A stretch of 9,707 nucleotides of DNA from Candidatus Gerdarchaeota archaeon. GTDB taxonomy: Archaea; Asgardarchaeota; Heimdallarchaeia; JABLTI01. The notes beneath the pieces are model-generated. The model had not been told where the DNA came from, made no database searches, and saw only the letters and a program-made list of their open reading frames with translations. Both the position numbers and the translations under genes were made by a program. Where the stretch lies: the NCBI GenBank assembly GCA_016840905.1, contig JAEORM010000005.1:1-9707 (forward strand), in the 5' to 3' direction. Below are positions 1-7,594 of this stretch, piece by piece; positions within the stretch are counted from its first letter, which is position 1; each line of letters starts with the position of its first letter.

Positions 1-685
1 CAATTACTTCATTGTATTGATCAGTTCCTACTTCAACAGCTGTTAAGCCTTTCTTAGTTAGCTCAAAAACAGTATTATCATCTATAGTAAATTGAGTTTT
101 CACTATGCCTATTTCTTCAAAATAAGCAATTATACTTTGAACAACTTCTACACTTAATTCAAGTTCCTCACTAATAGCACTAATATTATTTTGACCGTTA
201 ATACGTGTCAAAATTGCCCATTTGATATCATCTAATTTTTGGGGACCACGATCAGAAGTAGTAAGTTTGGGAATATGATACGGGCTTATAGGTTTTCTTG
301 AGATTAATTGTTTAACCATTTCCTCGAAGTCACAAAAACAGGTTTGAAAACCATTAAAATTAGCTATCTCGGTTTGATATTTTCGTTCAAATTCAACTAC
401 TAACATTTTTAATTTTTCTTTGAAAGAATAATCTTTACTACTTAATATAAGCAAACCAATGACTTGACTACCAGGTTCAACTTGCAGAATGAAGTCACCA
501 CGATCAATATATTTGACCATCTCTTTACCTTCTGATGGTTTTAATTCCTCTGCAAAAGTAATTACTGCAGAAACAAAACCTGAAATAAGAGTGGGCTCAA
601 GACTAATATCTTCTCTAAAGCGATAAGAAAATAGCTGTACTCCTGAATGTTTGTGAATCATTTGAAGTTCAAAGGGGACTGTCAT
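1..685 (-). CDS. Longin-like domain plus winged-helix protein (3' end cut by window edge)
   Basis: The reading frame is open from an ATG at 683-685 to the left edge, giving 228 complete codons with no stop. An in-frame TAG lies directly before the ATG, so this start is well defined. Residues about 7-110 read HKHSGVQLFSYRF, then a helix, then VEPGSQVIGLLILSS and an amphipathic helix. This alternation resembles the longin/profilin-like domains found in Asgard GTPase regulators and in proteins related to Roadblock. Residues about 150-216 look like a winged helix, with helices around IKWAILTRI, ISAISEELEL and VVQSIIAYFEEIGIV followed by a beta wing. The only two cysteines seen are adjacent, C116-F-C118. 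The gene lies 30 nt after a Roadblock/LC7 gene and is probably co-transcribed with it. The longin assignment comes from sequence pattern only; a protein joining GTPase signalling to DNA or protein binding is an inference. Confidence 0.6.
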   Translation of the reverse strand, partial: MTVPFELQMIHKHSGVQLFSYRFREDISLEPTLISGFVSAVITFAEELKPSEGKEMVKYIDRGDFILQVEPGSQVIGLLILSSKDYSFKEKLKMLVVEFERKYQTEIANFNGFQTCFCDFEEMVKQLISRKPISPYHIPKLTTSDRGPQKLDDIKWAILTRINGQNNISAISEELELSVEVVQSIIAYFEEIGIVKTQFTIDDNTVFELTKKGLTAVEVGTDQYNEVI

Positions 686-715: not shown

Positions 716-1144
716 TCAATCTAATTGTATAGGACCTATATCTTCATCACATTCACCACATATAATCTCTTGTATTTTTGTAGCATATTTCCTCAAAACT
801 CTAATGGTCAAACCCATTGAGTTTAATTCCAATGAGGAACCAATGATGATATAGTCGCCTGCATTTGTTAGGATAGTAAAACCTTTTTCACCACGTACTA
901 GAACTTCTAATAAACCCCCATGTTCATTCATTGTTACTGCCTGTTCACCTGTGGATAATATTGCAGCAGAAATTGCTGAAAGTAGGTCAGGGTCAGATCC
1001 TTTTTTGGCGAAGAATGAAACTTTTATTCCTTCACGATTAACAACTGCTAAAGCTTCAAGATCTGTGTATTCACCAATTTCTCGAAGTATTTCATACATC
1101 TTTTTTTGTATTTCAGGATTTTCAGGCATAATAACACTATCCAT
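716..1144 (-). CDS. Roadblock/LC7 domain protein
   Basis: The 142-residue protein is essentially one Roadblock/LC7 (MglB-like) domain, residues about 10-125. The family pattern is clear: a first helix, the strand LEALAVVNREGIKVSFF, the long helix LLSAISAAILSTGEQAV, the hairpin GLLEVLVRGEKGFTILTNAGDYIIIGSS, and a last helix. Members form homodimers or heterodimers that bind small GTPases and can act as GAPs or scaffolds; in Asgard archaea they accompany numerous Ras-like GTPases. The ATG at 1142-1144 is preferred. An in-frame TTG at 1148-1150 would add two residues, and an ATG six codons into the gene (MPENPE) is also possible. The C-terminal tail has a CGEC pair (C129, C132), the only cysteines in the protein and unusual for such a small domain. 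Its partner GTPase is not known; a small GTPase gene lies about 2.5 kb upstream on the same strand. Confidence 0.9.
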   Translation of the reverse strand: MDSVIMPENPEIQKKMYEILREIGEYTDLEALAVVNREGIKVSFFAKKGSDPDLLSAISAAILSTGEQAVTMNEHGGLLEVLVRGEKGFTILTNAGDYIIIGSSLELNSMGLTIRVLRKYATKIQEIICGECDEDIGPIQLD

Positions 1145-1182
1145 AAACAAGTATAATTAATTAAGCTATTTTATGTTTGACC

Positions 1183-1225: not shown

Positions 1226-2656
1226 CTAATAAGCAGGAGAAATATAGACTACTTCTTTTGCTTCTTTGCCACAAATTAGACATTTACCATCAGGTTTTTC
1301 TTTTTTATCTTCACGGGTACCACGAATATCTGCACCAGTATCATTTTTAACCTTCTCAGCACAAGCAATATCACCACACCAATTAGCACGACTGAATCCT
1401 CTCTTTGTATCTTGAATTTCAATCAATTCTTGGTATGTTTTTGGATTGCTAATGCTATTAGCAAGTAATTGGTCTGCTTTCTGTTGTAAAAAGTCGTGAA
1501 TTTCCTTCAAGATTTTCTTTGCTTCAGCAGCTGCATCCTTAACAGGAACAGTCACTTTCGATCCAGTATCCCTTCTAACCAAAACTACTTGATTACTTTC
1601 AATATCTCGAGGTCCAATCTCTAATCTAATAGGTACACCTCTAACTTCCCATTCATTAAATTTCCATCCTGGTGTGTACCCTTCGCGTTTATCTAATTCA
1701 ACCTTAAGTCCTGCTTTAGTTAGAATCTTTAAGATTTTCTCACTTTCACCAATAACTTGGTCAGCATTTTCCTTCTTGTAGATGGGTATAATAATAATCT
1801 GAATTGGTGCAATGAAAGGTGGGATAATTAGTCCCTGGTTATCTCCATGTAACCCAATAATAGCTGCAATTAATCTGGTAGATAAACCATAACAAGTTTG
1901 ATAGACATGTTTGTTTGTTTTATCCTTGTCTTGAAACGTGATATCAAAAGCCTTACTAAAACCTTGACCAAGATTATGAGTTGTACCTATCTGCAAAGTA
2001 CGTCCATCTGGTAATGGTGAATCATAGGCAATTGAATAGACTGCTCCAGCAAAAGTGTCATGTTTTGGTCGTCTAAGAATTAGGAAAGACATACAACTGA
2101 GTTTGTATACAGCTTCATAGATTTTCATTGATTCCCTAACTTGTCTTTCAGCATCTTCTGCAGTAGCATGGCAAGTGTGCCCTTCTGACCATAAGAATTC
2201 TCTATCACGTAAAAGTGGTTTAGTATCCTTGGTATCAAAACGAATGATATTACAGAATTGATTTATCTTAAAAGGAAGATCACCATGACTTCGAATCCAT
2301 AAATGGAACATGTCATACATGATAGTTTCAGAAGTTGGACGGAGAGCTAATCTTCTTTCAAGAGGTTTATCTCCTGCATGAGTGACCCAAGCAACTTCGG
2401 GTATAAAACCTTCGAAGTGTTCTGCTTCACGTTGCAAATAATCCTCTGGTATAAAGAGCGGAAAATATGCATTTCTATGTCCCGTTATTTTCAATTCAGA
2501 ATCTAGTTTTGCTACAATAGATTCCCAAATAGAATAGCCATAGGGCATGATAACATTAGCCCCTTTTACAGGGGACCTTTTATCAACTATTTCTGCATAT
2601 TCAACAACAGTAGTGTACCATTGCAAAAACTCTTTTTCTTTATCTGGAAGCTTCAT
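1226..2656 (-). CDS. proS: Prolyl-tRNA synthetase, archaeal/eukaryotic type
   Basis: This class II aminoacyl-tRNA synthetase attaches proline to tRNA-Pro in the cytoplasm. At about 476 residues it has the usual archaeal length. Visible hallmarks, numbered from the ATG at 2654-2656, are the RPTSET box near 106-111, motif 2 with FDTKDTKPLLRDREFLWSEGHT near 140-161 including the EGHTCHAT segment, and motif 3 GLSTRLIAAIIGLHGDNQG near 257-275. The anticodon-binding domain follows, around residues 280-390. The C-terminal domain has zinc-type cysteines C427, C432, C459 and C462, and the protein ends in tyrosine, as is typical of the subgroup. There is no bacterial-type editing insert. A TTG nine bases upstream could add MAF, but the ATG is preferred. 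The gene follows trmI by about 70 nt. The assignment is firm. Confidence 0.97.
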   Translation of the reverse strand: MKLPDKEKEFLQWYTTVVEYAEIVDKRSPVKGANVIMPYGYSIWESIVAKLDSELKITGHRNAYFPLFIPEDYLQREAEHFEGFIPEVAWVTHAGDKPLERRLALRPTSETIMYDMFHLWIRSHGDLPFKINQFCNIIRFDTKDTKPLLRDREFLWSEGHTCHATAEDAERQVRESMKIYEAVYKLSCMSFLILRRPKHDTFAGAVYSIAYDSPLPDGRTLQIGTTHNLGQGFSKAFDITFQDKDKTNKHVYQTCYGLSTRLIAAIIGLHGDNQGLIIPPFIAPIQIIIIPIYKKENADQVIGESEKILKILTKAGLKVELDKREGYTPGWKFNEWEVRGVPIRLEIGPRDIESNQVVLVRRDTGSKVTVPVKDAAAEAKKILKEIHDFLQQKADQLLANSISNPKTYQELIEIQDTKRGFSRANWCGDIACAEKVKNDTGADIRGTREDKKEKPDGKCLICGKEAKEVVYISPAY

Positions 2657-2676
2657 GAATGCCAAATAAAAATTCC

Positions 2677-2725: not shown

Positions 2726-3502
2726 TCATTTTTTCTCAGCTAAACCCTTTCTACCAGTAATCAGAAAAGCGGTAAATCCAACCATTCTTGTTACAGGTCT
2801 AATTGCTCCTAATTTTGTAGATAAATCCCGTCTGATAACCTCAAATGCTTCTATCTGGTAAAAATTATTCTCAACCATAGCTGTAAGTGCTTTTTCTACC
2901 TGTGAAAAGGTCGGTACAAAAATGAGTAAAACACCTCCACCCATAAGAGCATTACGTGCGGGAACGACAATATCCCAAGGATTTGGTAGATCAAGAATTA
3001 CTGCATCTGCATCTGTTTCATCAAATCCTTCAACCACATCACGGATTTTAAACTCAACCAAATTTGTAAAACCTAATTTTTCGATATTTTTTCTTGCAAC
3101 TTGTTGATGGAGTTCTTTCCAGTCATAGGAGTAGATTTTTCCGTTTGGTTGGACATATCTCGCCATAACAGAGGTTAAAGCACCACTTCCTGTGCCAGCT
3201 TCAATTATTCGTGAACCACTACTTACTCCTGCTGAAAAAATGATTTGAGCAATATCAGTCTGATAGATAACTTGTGTAGAGTGAGTGATGGCATCCAAAT
3301 AATCCGTTGGAAATGGTTTCCAAATAAAGAAGGTGGCATCTTTATTATTCGTGATACTGGAACCAAACTCAAGGCCGATCAACTCAGATAATGAAATCGA
3401 CCCTTTATGTGTGTGGAACTCCTTACCTTTTTCTATCTTTACCATCCATTTTTTCTCAGCAGAAGCTGATATTAGGACATAGTCACCTTCTTGAATTTTC
3501 AT
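2726..3502 (-). CDS. trmI: tRNA (adenine-N1)-methyltransferase TrmI (m1A57/58)
   Basis: The 258-residue protein matches archaeal TrmI, the SAM-dependent enzyme that methylates N1 of adenine 57/58 in the T loop of tRNAs and usually works as a homotetramer. The N-terminal beta domain carries the FHTHKG signature (29-34), followed by ELIG near 40-43. The Rossmann methyltransferase domain has motif I EAGTGSGALT (101-110) for SAM binding, an acidic residue at the end of strand 2 (SYD, 125-127), the family motif DLPNPW (171-176; DLP-x-PW), and the late RPVTRMVGFT segment (235-244). The ATG start is clear, with AAGGT about 9 nt upstream. It lies between the GTPase fusion and proS. Close bacterial and eukaryotic relatives (Trm61) share the fold, but the length and archaeal context favour TrmI. 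Confidence 0.95.
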   Translation of the reverse strand: MKIQEGDYVLISASAEKKWMVKIEKGKEFHTHKGSISLSELIGLEFGSSITNNKDATFFIWKPFPTDYLDAITHSTQVIYQTDIAQIIFSAGVSSGSRIIEAGTGSGALTSVMARYVQPNGKIYSYDWKELHQQVARKNIEKLGFTNLVEFKIRDVVEGFDETDADAVILDLPNPWDIVVPARNALMGGGVLLIFVPTFSQVEKALTAMVENNFYQIEAFEVIRRDLSTKLGAIRPVTRMVGFTAFLITGRKGLAEKK

Positions 3503-3610: not shown

Positions 3611-4462
3611 TTATTTTGCTATTAATTTTATATATTCATCGTTAATTATCGCTTTAAAGAAGCTTTTATCTGAATCACCAACAATAGTCTTGGTACCAAT
3701 GATAGTGGTAGGTAAAGAAAGTATTCCATAATCTTTTGCTAAATCAGATTCTTGGTCGATGTTTATCACTTTCAAATTAATGGGATATCCACTTCCACTG
3801 ACCATGAGATTTTGAAGCGTTGTTGGGCACCAAAGACATTCTTTACTGGTGAAGAAAAGAACAGGTAGTTTCTCTTCATCAAATGCTCCATTAAATAGAA
3901 TTTTTTGTTTATTAGGGATGCCAAATTCCTCGTTCCATCCTGTAAGCATGGCAGCAATCATGGTAAAGATGTCAATGATATTTTGACCTGTTTTTGCGCT
4001 GGCAAAAACTATACCATTAAACTCTTTGCGAATTTCATTTTGAGCTATTTTATCAGATATATTATCCATATCGTAATCTAAATCGATTTTATTAAAAAGA
4101 ACAATTTTAGGGATTTTACGATTGATCACTTCGTTGATCTTTTCATTCCAAATAGCCAAACTTTCAATACTATCTAATTTTGTAACATCCGTAACAAAAA
4201 TAGCTGCATCTGCTTCGAGTAAATATCTAAAAGCAAATTTCTTGAATGCTTCCTGTCCCCCAACATCCCAGATAGATAATCCAACTTGCTTATCACTAAT
4301 TGTAATATAACGAGTATAAATGTTAAATCCTAATGTAGCAGCATAACTTTCAGCAAATTGATTATGAACGTATCTTTGAATGATACTTGTTTTTCCAACA
4401 CCGGGATTGCCTAAAACCACAATCTTCCGGGTTTCAAGAGAATCGATCAAATTCCACACCAT
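3611..4462 (-). CDS. Ras/Rab/Arf-like small GTPase fused to a thioredoxin-like domain
   Basis: This single uninterrupted 283-residue frame has two domains. Residues about 10-175 form a small GTPase with all five G motifs: G1 GNPGVGKTS (18-26), G2 threonine T43, G3 WDVGGQE (65-71) with the catalytic-type glutamine Q70, G4 NKID (124-127) and G5 SAK (155-157). The G3 wording is Arf-like while the rest is more Rab/Ras-like. Residues about 195-280 have a thioredoxin/glutaredoxin fold pattern: strand LPVLFFTS, the CxxC motif C209-L-W-C212, strand LKVINIDQE, then DYGILSLPTTI with the conserved proline P251 expected to be the cis-proline beside the active site. No transmembrane segment or C-terminal prenylation cysteine is visible. 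The two motif cysteines are the only ones in the protein. Domain identities are strong; the combined function is unknown and might be redox-linked switching or a thiol oxidoreductase under GTP control. Confidence 0.9.
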   Translation of the reverse strand: MVWNLIDSLETRKIVVLGNPGVGKTSIIQRYVHNQFAESYAATLGFNIYTRYITISDKQVGLSIWDVGGQEAFKKFAFRYLLEADAAIFVTDVTKLDSIESLAIWNEKINEVINRKIPKIVLFNKIDLDYDMDNISDKIAQNEIRKEFNGIVFASAKTGQNIIDIFTMIAAMLTGWNEEFGIPNKQKILFNGAFDEEKLPVLFFTSKECLWCPTTLQNLMVSGSGYPINLKVINIDQESDLAKDYGILSLPTTIIGTKTIVGDSDKSFFKAIINDEYIKLIAK

Positions 4463-4585: not shown

Positions 4586-4918
4586 TTATAACATCTTAAT
4601 TTTCTTACCTTCATTGCAGAGATCACAGTAATATATCACACGAGATGGTTTTCCTGATTTAATCCGAACATGTGCTGTTAAACCAGGATAAAGATATTTT
4701 TTGCATTTATTGCAAAAACGCAATCGCCAGTGTTCAGGAATAGTGATTCGTGCTTTCATAGCTATTTTTCGGGCGAGTTCACCGTATCTTTGAGCTAAAA
4801 TGGGATCTTGGTTATAAATGGCATCTGCTCGAGTGAGTAAAAGGATTATACGTTCTGAAGCAATTTGTTCTAGCTTTTTAGTTTCATTTTTTCTGTGACT
4901 CAAAAAATCACCACTCAA
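4586..4918 (-). CDS. rnp4: RNase P protein component 4 (Rpp21/Rpr2 family)
   Basis: The 110-residue protein matches archaeal Rnp4, the homologue of eukaryotic Rpp21/Rpr2. It is a subunit of the RNase P ribonucleoprotein that removes 5' leaders from pre-tRNAs and works together with Rnp1. The N-terminal half is helical, including SERIILLLTRADAIYN and RYGELARKIAMKARI. The C-terminal zinc ribbon has cysteine pairs CNKC (69-72) and CDLC (98-101), with the usual HWRLRFC lead-in and KKYLYPG after the first pair. No ATG is available in the N-terminal half. The start is either TTG at 4916-4918 or a second in-frame TTG 15 nt downstream, which has GGTGAT three bases before it. The gene diverges from rps19e and is followed by T runs. 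Confidence 0.93.
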   Translation of the reverse strand: MSGDFLSHRKNETKKLEQIASERIILLLTRADAIYNQDPILAQRYGELARKIAMKARITIPEHWRLRFCNKCKKYLYPGLTAHVRIKSGKPSRVIYYCDLCNEGKKIKML

Positions 4919-6775: not shown

Positions 6776-7594
6776 TTGGGCAATCAAGTAAAAGAGGAAA
6801 CACATAATCAAATCATTATTGATGAAGGGAATGAGAATAACCTGGATAATCAAAATAATATTCTTAATGTCGAATCAAGAACAGGTGATTTACCTGAATT
6901 AACAGAATATTCTGGTAAAACTATGACAATAAAAATTACTGCAGGAGCGATATTAGGATCATTAAGCATTATTATTGGTTTTAGTTGGGATGCAATAGTC
7001 GAACGGGTTGGTGGATTTAGTCCTTCCTTTGCTCCAGGTATGACTTGGCTTGACTTTTTAGCTATACCTATTCTAGTAGCATTTTTTATGTTCGGTATTT
7101 TAAGTGGATTAATTGCTGCTATCATAGGTTGCGGGGCAATTGCTTTCTTTCCATCAGAAGCGTTTGGTTGGCTTTCAATATGGCCTAAATTTTTTGCTTC
7201 TGTCTCAATGTTCTTTTTCCCCTGGTTAATTTTGAAACTTTTAAACAAAAAGGAATCAAGAAAAGAGAAGAAATTTTTCAAGTCATTTGCTTATTCTAGT
7301 AAAACTTTTCAACCCTTGAAAAATTATGCTTTTCTAATGGGTATGGCTATTTTAGGACGAGCTGTAGTAATGTTTGCTGTAAATACACTGGTTGTTGCAC
7401 CATTATTCTTCTGGTTACTAAAAATACCTCCATCTAACACTAGTTTCACTTCAGTTTTTACTCATCCAACACTTTATCTTTCTCTGGGTGGTGGGTATGC
7501 TGGTTGGAATCTTGTACAAGGACTAATAGATGCTGTGATTTCATATTTAATAGTTTATCCAACAAAATTATATCAACATTATAGTGTTTGGTAA
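6776..7594 (+). CDS. Six-helix membrane protein, ECF transporter S-component-like
   Basis: The 272-residue protein has a hydrophilic, Asn/Glu-rich N-terminal tail (1-50) and about six hydrophobic helices near 51-71, 90-107, 106-125, 133-155, 184-214 and 240-262. The stretch LDFLAIPILVAFFMFGILSG (92-111) followed by LIAAIIG resembles the D-x-P-x-L...FGxxxG signature of vitamin or metabolite S components of energy-coupling factor transporters; the helix count and the small C-terminal helix before a basic end also fit. S components bind the substrate and need a T component and ATPases, none of which is in this window. The substrate is unknown. The start is a TTG at 6776; an in-frame TAG lies 12 nt upstream, and the first internal ATG (residue 50) would remove the tail. 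The gene is flanked by terminators and appears monocistronic. Confidence 0.6.
   Translation: MGNQVKEETHNQIIIDEGNENNLDNQNNILNVESRTGDLPELTEYSGKTMTIKITAGAILGSLSIIIGFSWDAIVERVGGFSPSFAPGMTWLDFLAIPILVAFFMFGILSGLIAAIIGCGAIAFFPSEAFGWLSIWPKFFASVSMFFFPWLILKLLNKKESRKEKKFFKSFAYSSKTFQPLKNYAFLMGMAILGRAVVMFAVNTLVVAPLFFWLLKIPPSNTSFTSVFTHPTLYLSLGGGYAGWNLVQGLIDAVISYLIVYPTKLYQHYSVW

What the first reader, a model, noticed from the sequence alone, without database searches (positions are those of the whole stretch)
3611..4462. Small GTPase fused to a thioredoxin-like domain with a CLWC active-site motif
One intact frame encodes a complete G domain (GNPGVGKTS, T43, WDVGGQE, NKID, SAK) followed directly by a thioredoxin/glutaredoxin-type domain with C209-L-W-C212 and P251 in the expected cis-proline position. 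Ras-superfamily proteins rarely carry a redox domain. The two cysteines are the only ones in the protein, so disulfide chemistry, if any, is confined to this site. Either the redox state could set GTPase activity or membrane/partner binding, or GTP could control a thiol oxidoreductase. I know of no described system with this architecture, but I cannot search for one.
Basis: partly seen in the sequence, partly recalled or inferred. Interest (0 to 1): 0.82.

Follow-up and report, generated by a model that had tools for sequence, protein, structure and literature searches.

The report
Small GTPase fused to a thioredoxin
An Asgard archaeon carries a Ras/Rab-like molecular switch welded to a small thioredoxin, a redox protein; the pairing recurs in related microbes as a fusion and, in others, as neighbouring genes, which suggests a link between redox state and GTPase switching that is not yet tested.

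Summary
The finding holds, with one correction: the gene is on the minus strand (4462→3611). Residues 11-177 are a complete Ras-family G domain. Residues ~185-283 are a minimal thioredoxin domain with C209-x-x-C212 and P251 at the cis-proline position (model pLDDT 87.6; best hits thioredoxins). It is no assembly artefact. Fifty other database proteins align; C209 is kept in 48, and C212 and P251 in 50, of the 50 rows reaching those columns. The fusion (A) was listed in 9 of 227 Asgard-phylum genomes, which are the 9 held of one order. Each also carries a paralogue (B) that keeps the fold but has D-x-W-S for C-x-x-C (27 of 27 rows), and a PAS-thioredoxin-PAS-kinase-like protein (CVYC, 9 of 9). 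In 67 other Asgard genomes a related stand-alone thioredoxin gene was found; in 66 of 68 copies it directly follows a small-GTPase gene on the same strand, usually with a V4R-like gene next. GTPase-thioredoxin association is thus recurrent in Asgard archaea. My searches listed no paper describing it. Best reading: a redox-coupled small GTPase. Which domain controls which is inferred, and trees do not resolve whether fusion and gene pair share one origin.

The parts
3611..4462 (-). GTPase-thioredoxin fusion gene (family A), 283 aa, ATG start
3932..4432 (-). G domain, residues 11-177 (Ras/Rab-like, WDVGGQ switch II)
4388..4411 (-). P-loop GNPGVGKT, residues 18-25; Pro20 in 49 of 49 rows, at the place of Ras Gly12 (Ras numbering recalled)
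   Evidence: alignment A1
3614..3910 (-). minimal thioredoxin domain, residues 185-283, in the stretch folded alone
3827..3838 (-). CLWC active-site motif, residues 209-212
   Evidence: C209 in 48 of 50, C212 in 50 of 50 rows that reach the columns
3710..3712 (-). P251, cis-proline position (LPTT)
   Evidence: 50 of 50 rows that reach the column
4586..4918 (-). RNase P Rpr2/Rpp21-type subunit, first gene upstream, neighbour in 7 of 8 testable loci
   Evidence: Pfam Rpr2 3.4e-16; synteny
2726..3502 (-). tRNA methyltransferase (GCD14/TrmI-type), next gene downstream
   Evidence: Pfam GCD14 1e-39; synteny
1226..2665 (-). prolyl-tRNA synthetase
   Evidence: Pfam ProRS-C_1 3e-16, tRNA-synt_2b 1.1e-32; synteny
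716..1150 (-). Roadblock/LC7 protein, candidate GTPase partner (inference)
   Evidence: Pfam Robl_LC7 1.2e-10; PDB roadblock 1.8e-12 with the orthologue profile; synteny
2..685 (-). HTH_45-like protein with an unassigned N-terminal domain, runs off the window
   Evidence: Pfam HTH_45 1.9e-5, 25.1 of 25.5 bits, just under the cut-off; synteny

Best explanation
A two-domain signalling protein: a nucleotide-binding Rab-like switch carrying a minimal thioredoxin whose active site is conserved. SHOWN: the fusion, the fold, the near-invariant CxxC and cis-proline, a paralogue in which the CxxC is replaced, and GTPase/thioredoxin gene neighbours elsewhere in Asgard archaea. INFERRED: C209/C212 cycle between dithiol and disulfide, reduced by the cell's thioredoxin system or oxidised by thiol stress. 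The redox state of this module (or a mixed disulfide it makes with a partner or, in most orthologues, with the extra cysteine before strand 1) changes partner binding or GTPase output of the attached G domain. Roadblock- or V4R-type proteins are candidate regulators. Paralogue B would be the redox-blind version of the same switch.
For: Fusion family of 51 aligned proteins, the window's included; C209 in 48 of 50, C212 and P251 in 50 of 50 rows that reach the columns. In A the thioredoxin part is less conserved overall than the G part (mean majority 0.64 against 0.82), yet C209, C212, S249, P251 and T252 are at 90% or more. G1-G5 motifs are intact. Paralogue B in the same 9 of 9 order genomes, with D-x-W-S in 27 of 27 rows. 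A PAS-thioredoxin(CVYC)-PAS-HATPase protein in the same 9 genomes puts a thioredoxin into a second sensor-type protein. A stand-alone relative directly follows a small GTPase on the same strand in 66 of 68 copies in 67 genomes. A stand-alone thioredoxin sits by a roadblock gene in L158. A roadblock gene follows in the A operon in the 7 of 9 loci long enough to show it, and in the window.
Against: No biochemistry. The C-terminal domain of the window's own protein scores below the curated cut-offs. B keeps the fold without the cysteines, so the fold alone has a use. Two of 50 A rows lack C209 (P0045, P0047). The column-11 cysteine is missing in the window and its close relatives P0002-P0004, so an intramolecular target is not general. 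The roadblock gene occurs in 41 of 47 class genomes outside the order and is not tied to A. The other neighbours of A are tRNA/RNase P genes, which point to no redox role. Trees do not tie A's G domain to the GTPase that neighbours the Loki-type thioredoxin.
Confidence: 0.45

Rival explanations
1. GTP-targeted oxidoreductase: the G domain is the addressing part. In the GTP state it docks on a scaffold or membrane platform and brings the thioredoxin to disulfide substrates there; redox does not act on the G domain.
For: In 67 other genomes the thioredoxin is a separate protein, next to a GTPase gene in 65 of them, so it can act in trans. Linker 178-193 is low-confidence in the full model, compatible with a tethered, freely moving domain. 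Stand-alone thioredoxins in 9 of 9 order genomes suggest a working thiol system.
Against: B keeps the G domain and the fold without the chemistry. No prenylation signal: the last four residues hold no Cys in 51 of 51 rows.
Confidence: 0.25
2. The thioredoxin fold serves mainly as a protein-interaction module, as in redox-inactive thioredoxin-fold proteins; the CxxC in A is residual or stabilises the fold.
For: B: fold region and cis-proline kept, D-x-W-S invariant in 27 of 27 rows. B rows also match KaiB (12 of 27) and Thioredoxin_6 (4 of 27) at E 0.01 or better. The Trp before the second cysteine is common to A (36 of 50) and B (27 of 27), so part of the loop is conserved for something other than thiols.
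Against: Near-invariance of both cysteines in A at about 56-87% identity to the window, while the residue after C209 varies (Thr 21, Ser 9, Asp 9, Leu 4, Glu 4 and others of 50).
Confidence: 0.2
3. Chance or assembly joining of two genes.
For: None found.
Against: Fusions of about the same length in separate assemblies with one gene order; nine genomes held in the order, nine with the gene (in one the contig starts inside it).
Confidence: 0.01

Closest known systems
Rab/Ras-family small GTPases (Ypt51, Ypt7, Rab21; Asgard Rab-like proteins)
   Same: Full G1-G5 set; PDB profile hits Ypt51 6.7e-29, Rab21 2.4e-28
   Different: Carries a C-terminal thioredoxin instead of a prenylated tail; WDVGGQ switch II is Arf-like (recalled); Pro at the Ras Gly12 place in 49 of 49 rows
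MJ0307-type minimal archaeal thioredoxin (PDB 1fo5, 1nho)
   Same: ~85-residue thioredoxin, CxxC, cis-Pro; best PDB sequence matches
   Different: Fused behind a G domain; second middle residue of CxxC is Trp in 36 of 50 rows; scores far below TIGR00411's cut-off (29.1 of 92.75 bits)
Asgard GTPase fusions with roadblock or longin domains (PMC10933270, passages and section 7 read)
   Same: Small GTPase plus a further domain in one chain in Asgard archaea
   Different: Those add roadblock/longin platforms or '?' domains of unknown function; the word thioredoxin does not occur in that paper's main text
Loki-type gene cluster GTPase - thioredoxin - V4R-like - GTPase (found here)
   Same: Same two partners, same order GTPase then thioredoxin
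   Different: Separate genes; the adjacent G domain is not shown to be the sister of A's (AU test A+GTPase1 p 0.267, A+GTPase2 p 0.578; neither rejected nor shown)

Membership tests
Ras-superfamily small GTPase | G1-G5 motifs and match to the family profile | tested here: met
   structural match also, from a low-confidence model
Rab subfamily | C-terminal prenylatable cysteines | tested here: not met
   no Cys in the last four residues of 51 of 51 rows (three of the rows are short)
Arf subfamily | N-terminal myristoylation glycine / amphipathic helix | tested here: not met
   window protein starts MVWN; the five commonest starts among 51 rows are ML, MV, MI, MR, MD; at least two rows start MG (P0021, P0025); helix not tested
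Thioredoxin family (fold) | thioredoxin fold | tested here: met
   a minimal form, seven elements E-H-E-H-E-E-H in the model
Thioredoxin family (active site) | CxxC and cis-proline | tested here: met
   48 of 50 and 50 of 50 rows
Thioredoxin family (Pfam PF00085) | score over the curated cut-off | tested here: inconclusive
   window protein 13.6 of 23.5 bits; of the 9 A loci of the order genomes 6 pass outright, one only with its neighbours in the frame, two do not
Thioredoxin family | disulfide reductase activity / redox potential | not testable with these tools
   needs protein
MJ0307 family (TIGR00411) | NCBIfam equivalog cut-off 92.75 bits | tested here: not met
   29.1 bits
MglA/MglB-like GTPase-roadblock pair | roadblock protein that acts as GAP/GEF of this GTPase | not testable with these tools
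   co-located only; the roadblock is class-wide

The most novel reading that the evidence does not exclude
Asgard archaea have a dedicated redox-GTPase signalling system: a thioredoxin module coupled to Rab-like switches, as a gene cluster (with a V4R/TRAPPC3-like protein) in Loki-type genomes and as a single fused protein plus a redox-blind twin in this order. It would let cellular redox state set membrane- or polarity-type GTPase signalling before eukaryotes arose.
Probability: 0.35. Interest if true: 0.87.

Novelty: new variant of a known kind. Interest (0 to 1): 0.73.

Why it matters
Small GTPases are the core of eukaryotic membrane traffic and are known to be expanded in Asgard archaea, but what inputs they read there is largely unknown (recalled). 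A conserved, lineage-wide link to a thioredoxin gives a concrete, testable input (redox), with a natural control: a paralogue in each of the nine order genomes that lacks the two cysteines. The gene-neighbour pairs in other Asgard genomes make the link more than a one-off fusion, although those genomes are related to each other and whether pair and fusion arose separately is open.

Tried and rejected
Assembly error: rejected.

Virus origin: one scan of viral contigs with the protein found no relative.

Direct fusion of the Loki-type GTPase1-thioredoxin pair: not supported and not excluded. Trees used a part of what was held: 6 of 10 A loci (window included), 5 of 9 B loci, 14 of 68 Loki-type thioredoxins, other GTPases mostly from two of the nine order genomes. 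In the best G-domain tree A lies nearer B, the second Loki-type GTPase and a Loki-type roadblock-GTPase than GTPase1, but the split is unstarred (87/93) and AU tests reject none of A+GTPase1 (p 0.267), A+GTPase2 (0.578), B+GTPase1 (0.456). A+B as one G-domain clade: 55/61 and 72/89, unstarred. Thioredoxin trees (87 columns) put A, B and the kinase domain in one unstarred part with a few other thioredoxins; long branches were flagged.

The whole-protein model is poor (mean pLDDT 65.4; 42-76 per ten-residue block in the G domain) and the listed structural matches were all GTPases; I took no domain-domain contact from it. The 530-aa proteins that matched A beyond the G domain: the one scanned (L019) is a GTPase with a weak roadblock hit and no thioredoxin hit. 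Two-domain GTPases among the lower rows (P0159, P0216, P0223, P0054) have no thioredoxin hit in Pfam; two carry DUF835.

The roadblock as a dedicated partner of A: weakened, since it is class-wide, and in five other genomes looked at (L132-L136, of 12 such loci fetched) no neighbour within about 1.5 kb matched a protein of the L001 locus. The HTH_45 protein's N-terminal domain was not assigned. Rpr2 as a fixed upstream neighbour: L005 has 536 bases upstream of A and no Rpr2 in them.

Literature: nine searches; several lists were capped (67: 20 of 89; 73: 10 of 26; 74: 10 of 12; 96: 10 of 571). No listed title or abstract start is on a Ras-type GTPase fused to, or encoded next to, a thioredoxin in archaea. 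Apart from PMC10933270 only the listings were seen; bioRxiv and most subscription papers are not held.

Limits: genome hit lists were cut by the tool, so weaker rows were not seen; the protein searches reach only relatives sharing short words and of 0.55-1.75 times the length, so unrelated GTPase-thioredoxin fusions elsewhere could be missed; the kinase search used E 1e-100, so distant relatives are not excluded; genomes may be incomplete.

They named the synthetase, cleared four rows, and showed the missing Rpr2 in L005.

Full report

IT IS A REAL FAMILY. The protein search gave 51 proteins of this family, the window's own included: 48 of 255-291 aa and three of 205-210 aa. C209 is Cys in 48 of 50 rows that reach the column (the others Ser and Ala), C212 in 50 of 50, P251 in 50 of 50. 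The residue after C209 varies; the one before C212 is Trp in 36 of 50. A second, profile-based search with A and B together listed no further full-length relatives among its best 120 of 689 rows. The rows below A and B were GTPases that match the query over 41-70% of its length; four of those with longer chains were scanned and have no thioredoxin hit. One 152-aa row (P0208) is a fragment with the thioredoxin part. Three members carry labels outside Heimdallarchaeota or 'Asgard group' (Bathyarchaeia P0003, Thorarchaeota P0018, and Zixibacteria P0097 for paralogue B); I suspect binning errors but did not test this.

WHERE IT OCCURS. Genome contigs gave nine loci, all titled Candidatus Heimdallarchaeota or Asgard group archaeon. 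Among 227 genomes of the phylum, full-length matches to A were listed only in these nine (the list is cut at weak scores). The order of G001 has nine genomes held, and all nine have A, one of them cut by a contig end. The window itself lies in no held genome.

A REDOX-BLIND TWIN. The same nine genomes each hold one paralogue, B; in 225 phylum genomes full-length matches to B were listed only in these nine. I aligned 27 of the 28 B proteins (the 171-aa partial P0115 was left out). They keep the thioredoxin region and, in 26 of 26 rows that reach it, the cis-proline, but have Asp, Trp and Ser fixed in the pattern D-x-W-S where A has C-x-x-C. The two domains are related by profile comparison (hhalign probability 97.6). 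So one twin keeps the chemistry and the other has lost or never had it. I read this as evidence both that the thiols matter in A and that the fold has a role without them.

A THIRD PROTEIN. The nine genomes also carry a ~660-aa PAS-thioredoxin-PAS-HATPase protein. Two of the nine were scanned (L049: PAS 3.7e-25, HATPase_c 9.8e-23, Thioredoxin 1.1e-6; L053 alike). CVYC stands in 9 of 9 (one is cut by a contig end). At E 1e-100 or better it was found in 9 of 58 class genomes, which are these nine. Thioredoxin modules are thus built into two types of signalling protein in this order.

THE SAME PARTNERS AS NEIGHBOURING GENES. A search of 225 phylum genomes with the thioredoxin profile matched 166 of 225 at 1e-6, in the listed rows often as frames of 85-150 aa. 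I then searched with that thioredoxin: 68 matches in 67 of 225 genomes, none in the nine order genomes. I inspected all 68 places (30 loci, 35 already held). In 61 of the 63 that the script could label, the next gene upstream on the same strand is the GTPase, 3-46 bases away in 52 of the 61 and 3-4 bases in 19. Five more, found by tblastn, have the same arrangement. Of the remaining two, one lies at a contig end, and in one the order is GTPase - V4R-like - thioredoxin. Total 66 of 68, in 65 of 67 genomes. These genomes are related, so the copies are not independent events; identity to the query falls to about 46-58% in the most distant ones. The next gene downstream is, in 60 of 63, a relative of a 159-aa protein whose one scanned copy has weak V4R similarity (3.5e-5, under the cut-off; it also matches DUF2507 at 5.3e-6, likewise under the cut-off). 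V4R is the family related to the TRAPPC3 Rab regulator (recalled). The trees do not say whether A descends from this cluster.

NEIGHBOURS OF A. The order Rpr2 - A - GCD14/TrmI - prolyl-tRNA synthetase is largely kept: TrmI and the synthetase follow A in 9 of 9 fetched loci. Rpr2 precedes it in 7 of the 8 loci with sequence upstream; L005 has 536 bases there and no Rpr2. A roadblock gene and an HTH_45-like gene follow in the 7 loci that reach so far. The roadblock protein matches solved roadblock structures (1.8e-12), but it occurs in 41 of 47 class genomes searched outside the order and is therefore probably older than A. It remains a candidate regulator, no more.

HOW IT MOST LIKELY WORKS. 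I think the thioredoxin is a redox module that tunes the switch or its contacts. In 40 of 48 rows a third cysteine stands at column 11, just before the first G-domain strand, a possible internal partner; it is absent from the window's protein and its closest relatives, so the general mechanism must work without it. The opposite reading, a G domain that steers an oxidoreductase, and a purely structural role of the fold, are listed as rivals. Nothing here measures activity.

NOVELTY. Tran et al. 2024 (PMC10933270; passages, section 7) describe Asgard GTPases fused with roadblock or longin domains; 'thioredoxin' does not occur in that paper's main text. Nine literature searches, some with capped lists, listed no paper on a Ras-type GTPase-thioredoxin fusion or gene pair in archaea (listings only). 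Both domains are known kinds; the combination, its redox-blind twin and its gene-pair form are, as far as I could see, undescribed. Hence 'new variant of a known kind', with high interest because it is directly testable.

Noticed in passing
L049 1465-3447 (+) and L050-L054, L091-L093: PAS-thioredoxin(CVYC)-PAS-HATPase kinase-like proteins of about 660 aa, one in each of the nine order genomes; a thioredoxin inside a sensor-kinase-like protein.
   Followed up: partly
L144-L223, e.g. L144 3074-5128 (-): Loki-type cluster GTPase - thioredoxin - V4R-like - GTPase, thioredoxin 3-4 bases behind the GTPase stop in 19 of 61 loci.
   Followed up: yes
L067, L084-L090: In eight order genomes two small GTPase genes (next to each other in seven of the eight) lie near a WCPPC thioredoxin with one or more ~165-aa membrane proteins close by; the one tested (L086) resembles the membrane half of OST3/OST6 (Pfam 4.5e-5, under the cut-off).
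   Followed up: partly
L158 3141-3946 (+): A roadblock gene directly followed by a thioredoxin/KaiB-like gene with CAFC in another Asgard genome.
   Followed up: no
L157 1992-3672 (+): A KaiC-family ATPase directly followed by an 87-aa thioredoxin (CSWC).
   Followed up: no
L019 841-2406 (-): 521-aa GTPase with a weak N-terminal roadblock hit (0.0083) and a ~170-aa C-terminal part that looks by eye like a degenerate second G domain.
   Followed up: no
window 6776-7594 (+): 272-aa protein with weak similarity to ECF transporter substrate-specific components (7.2e-6, under the cut-off).
   Followed up: no
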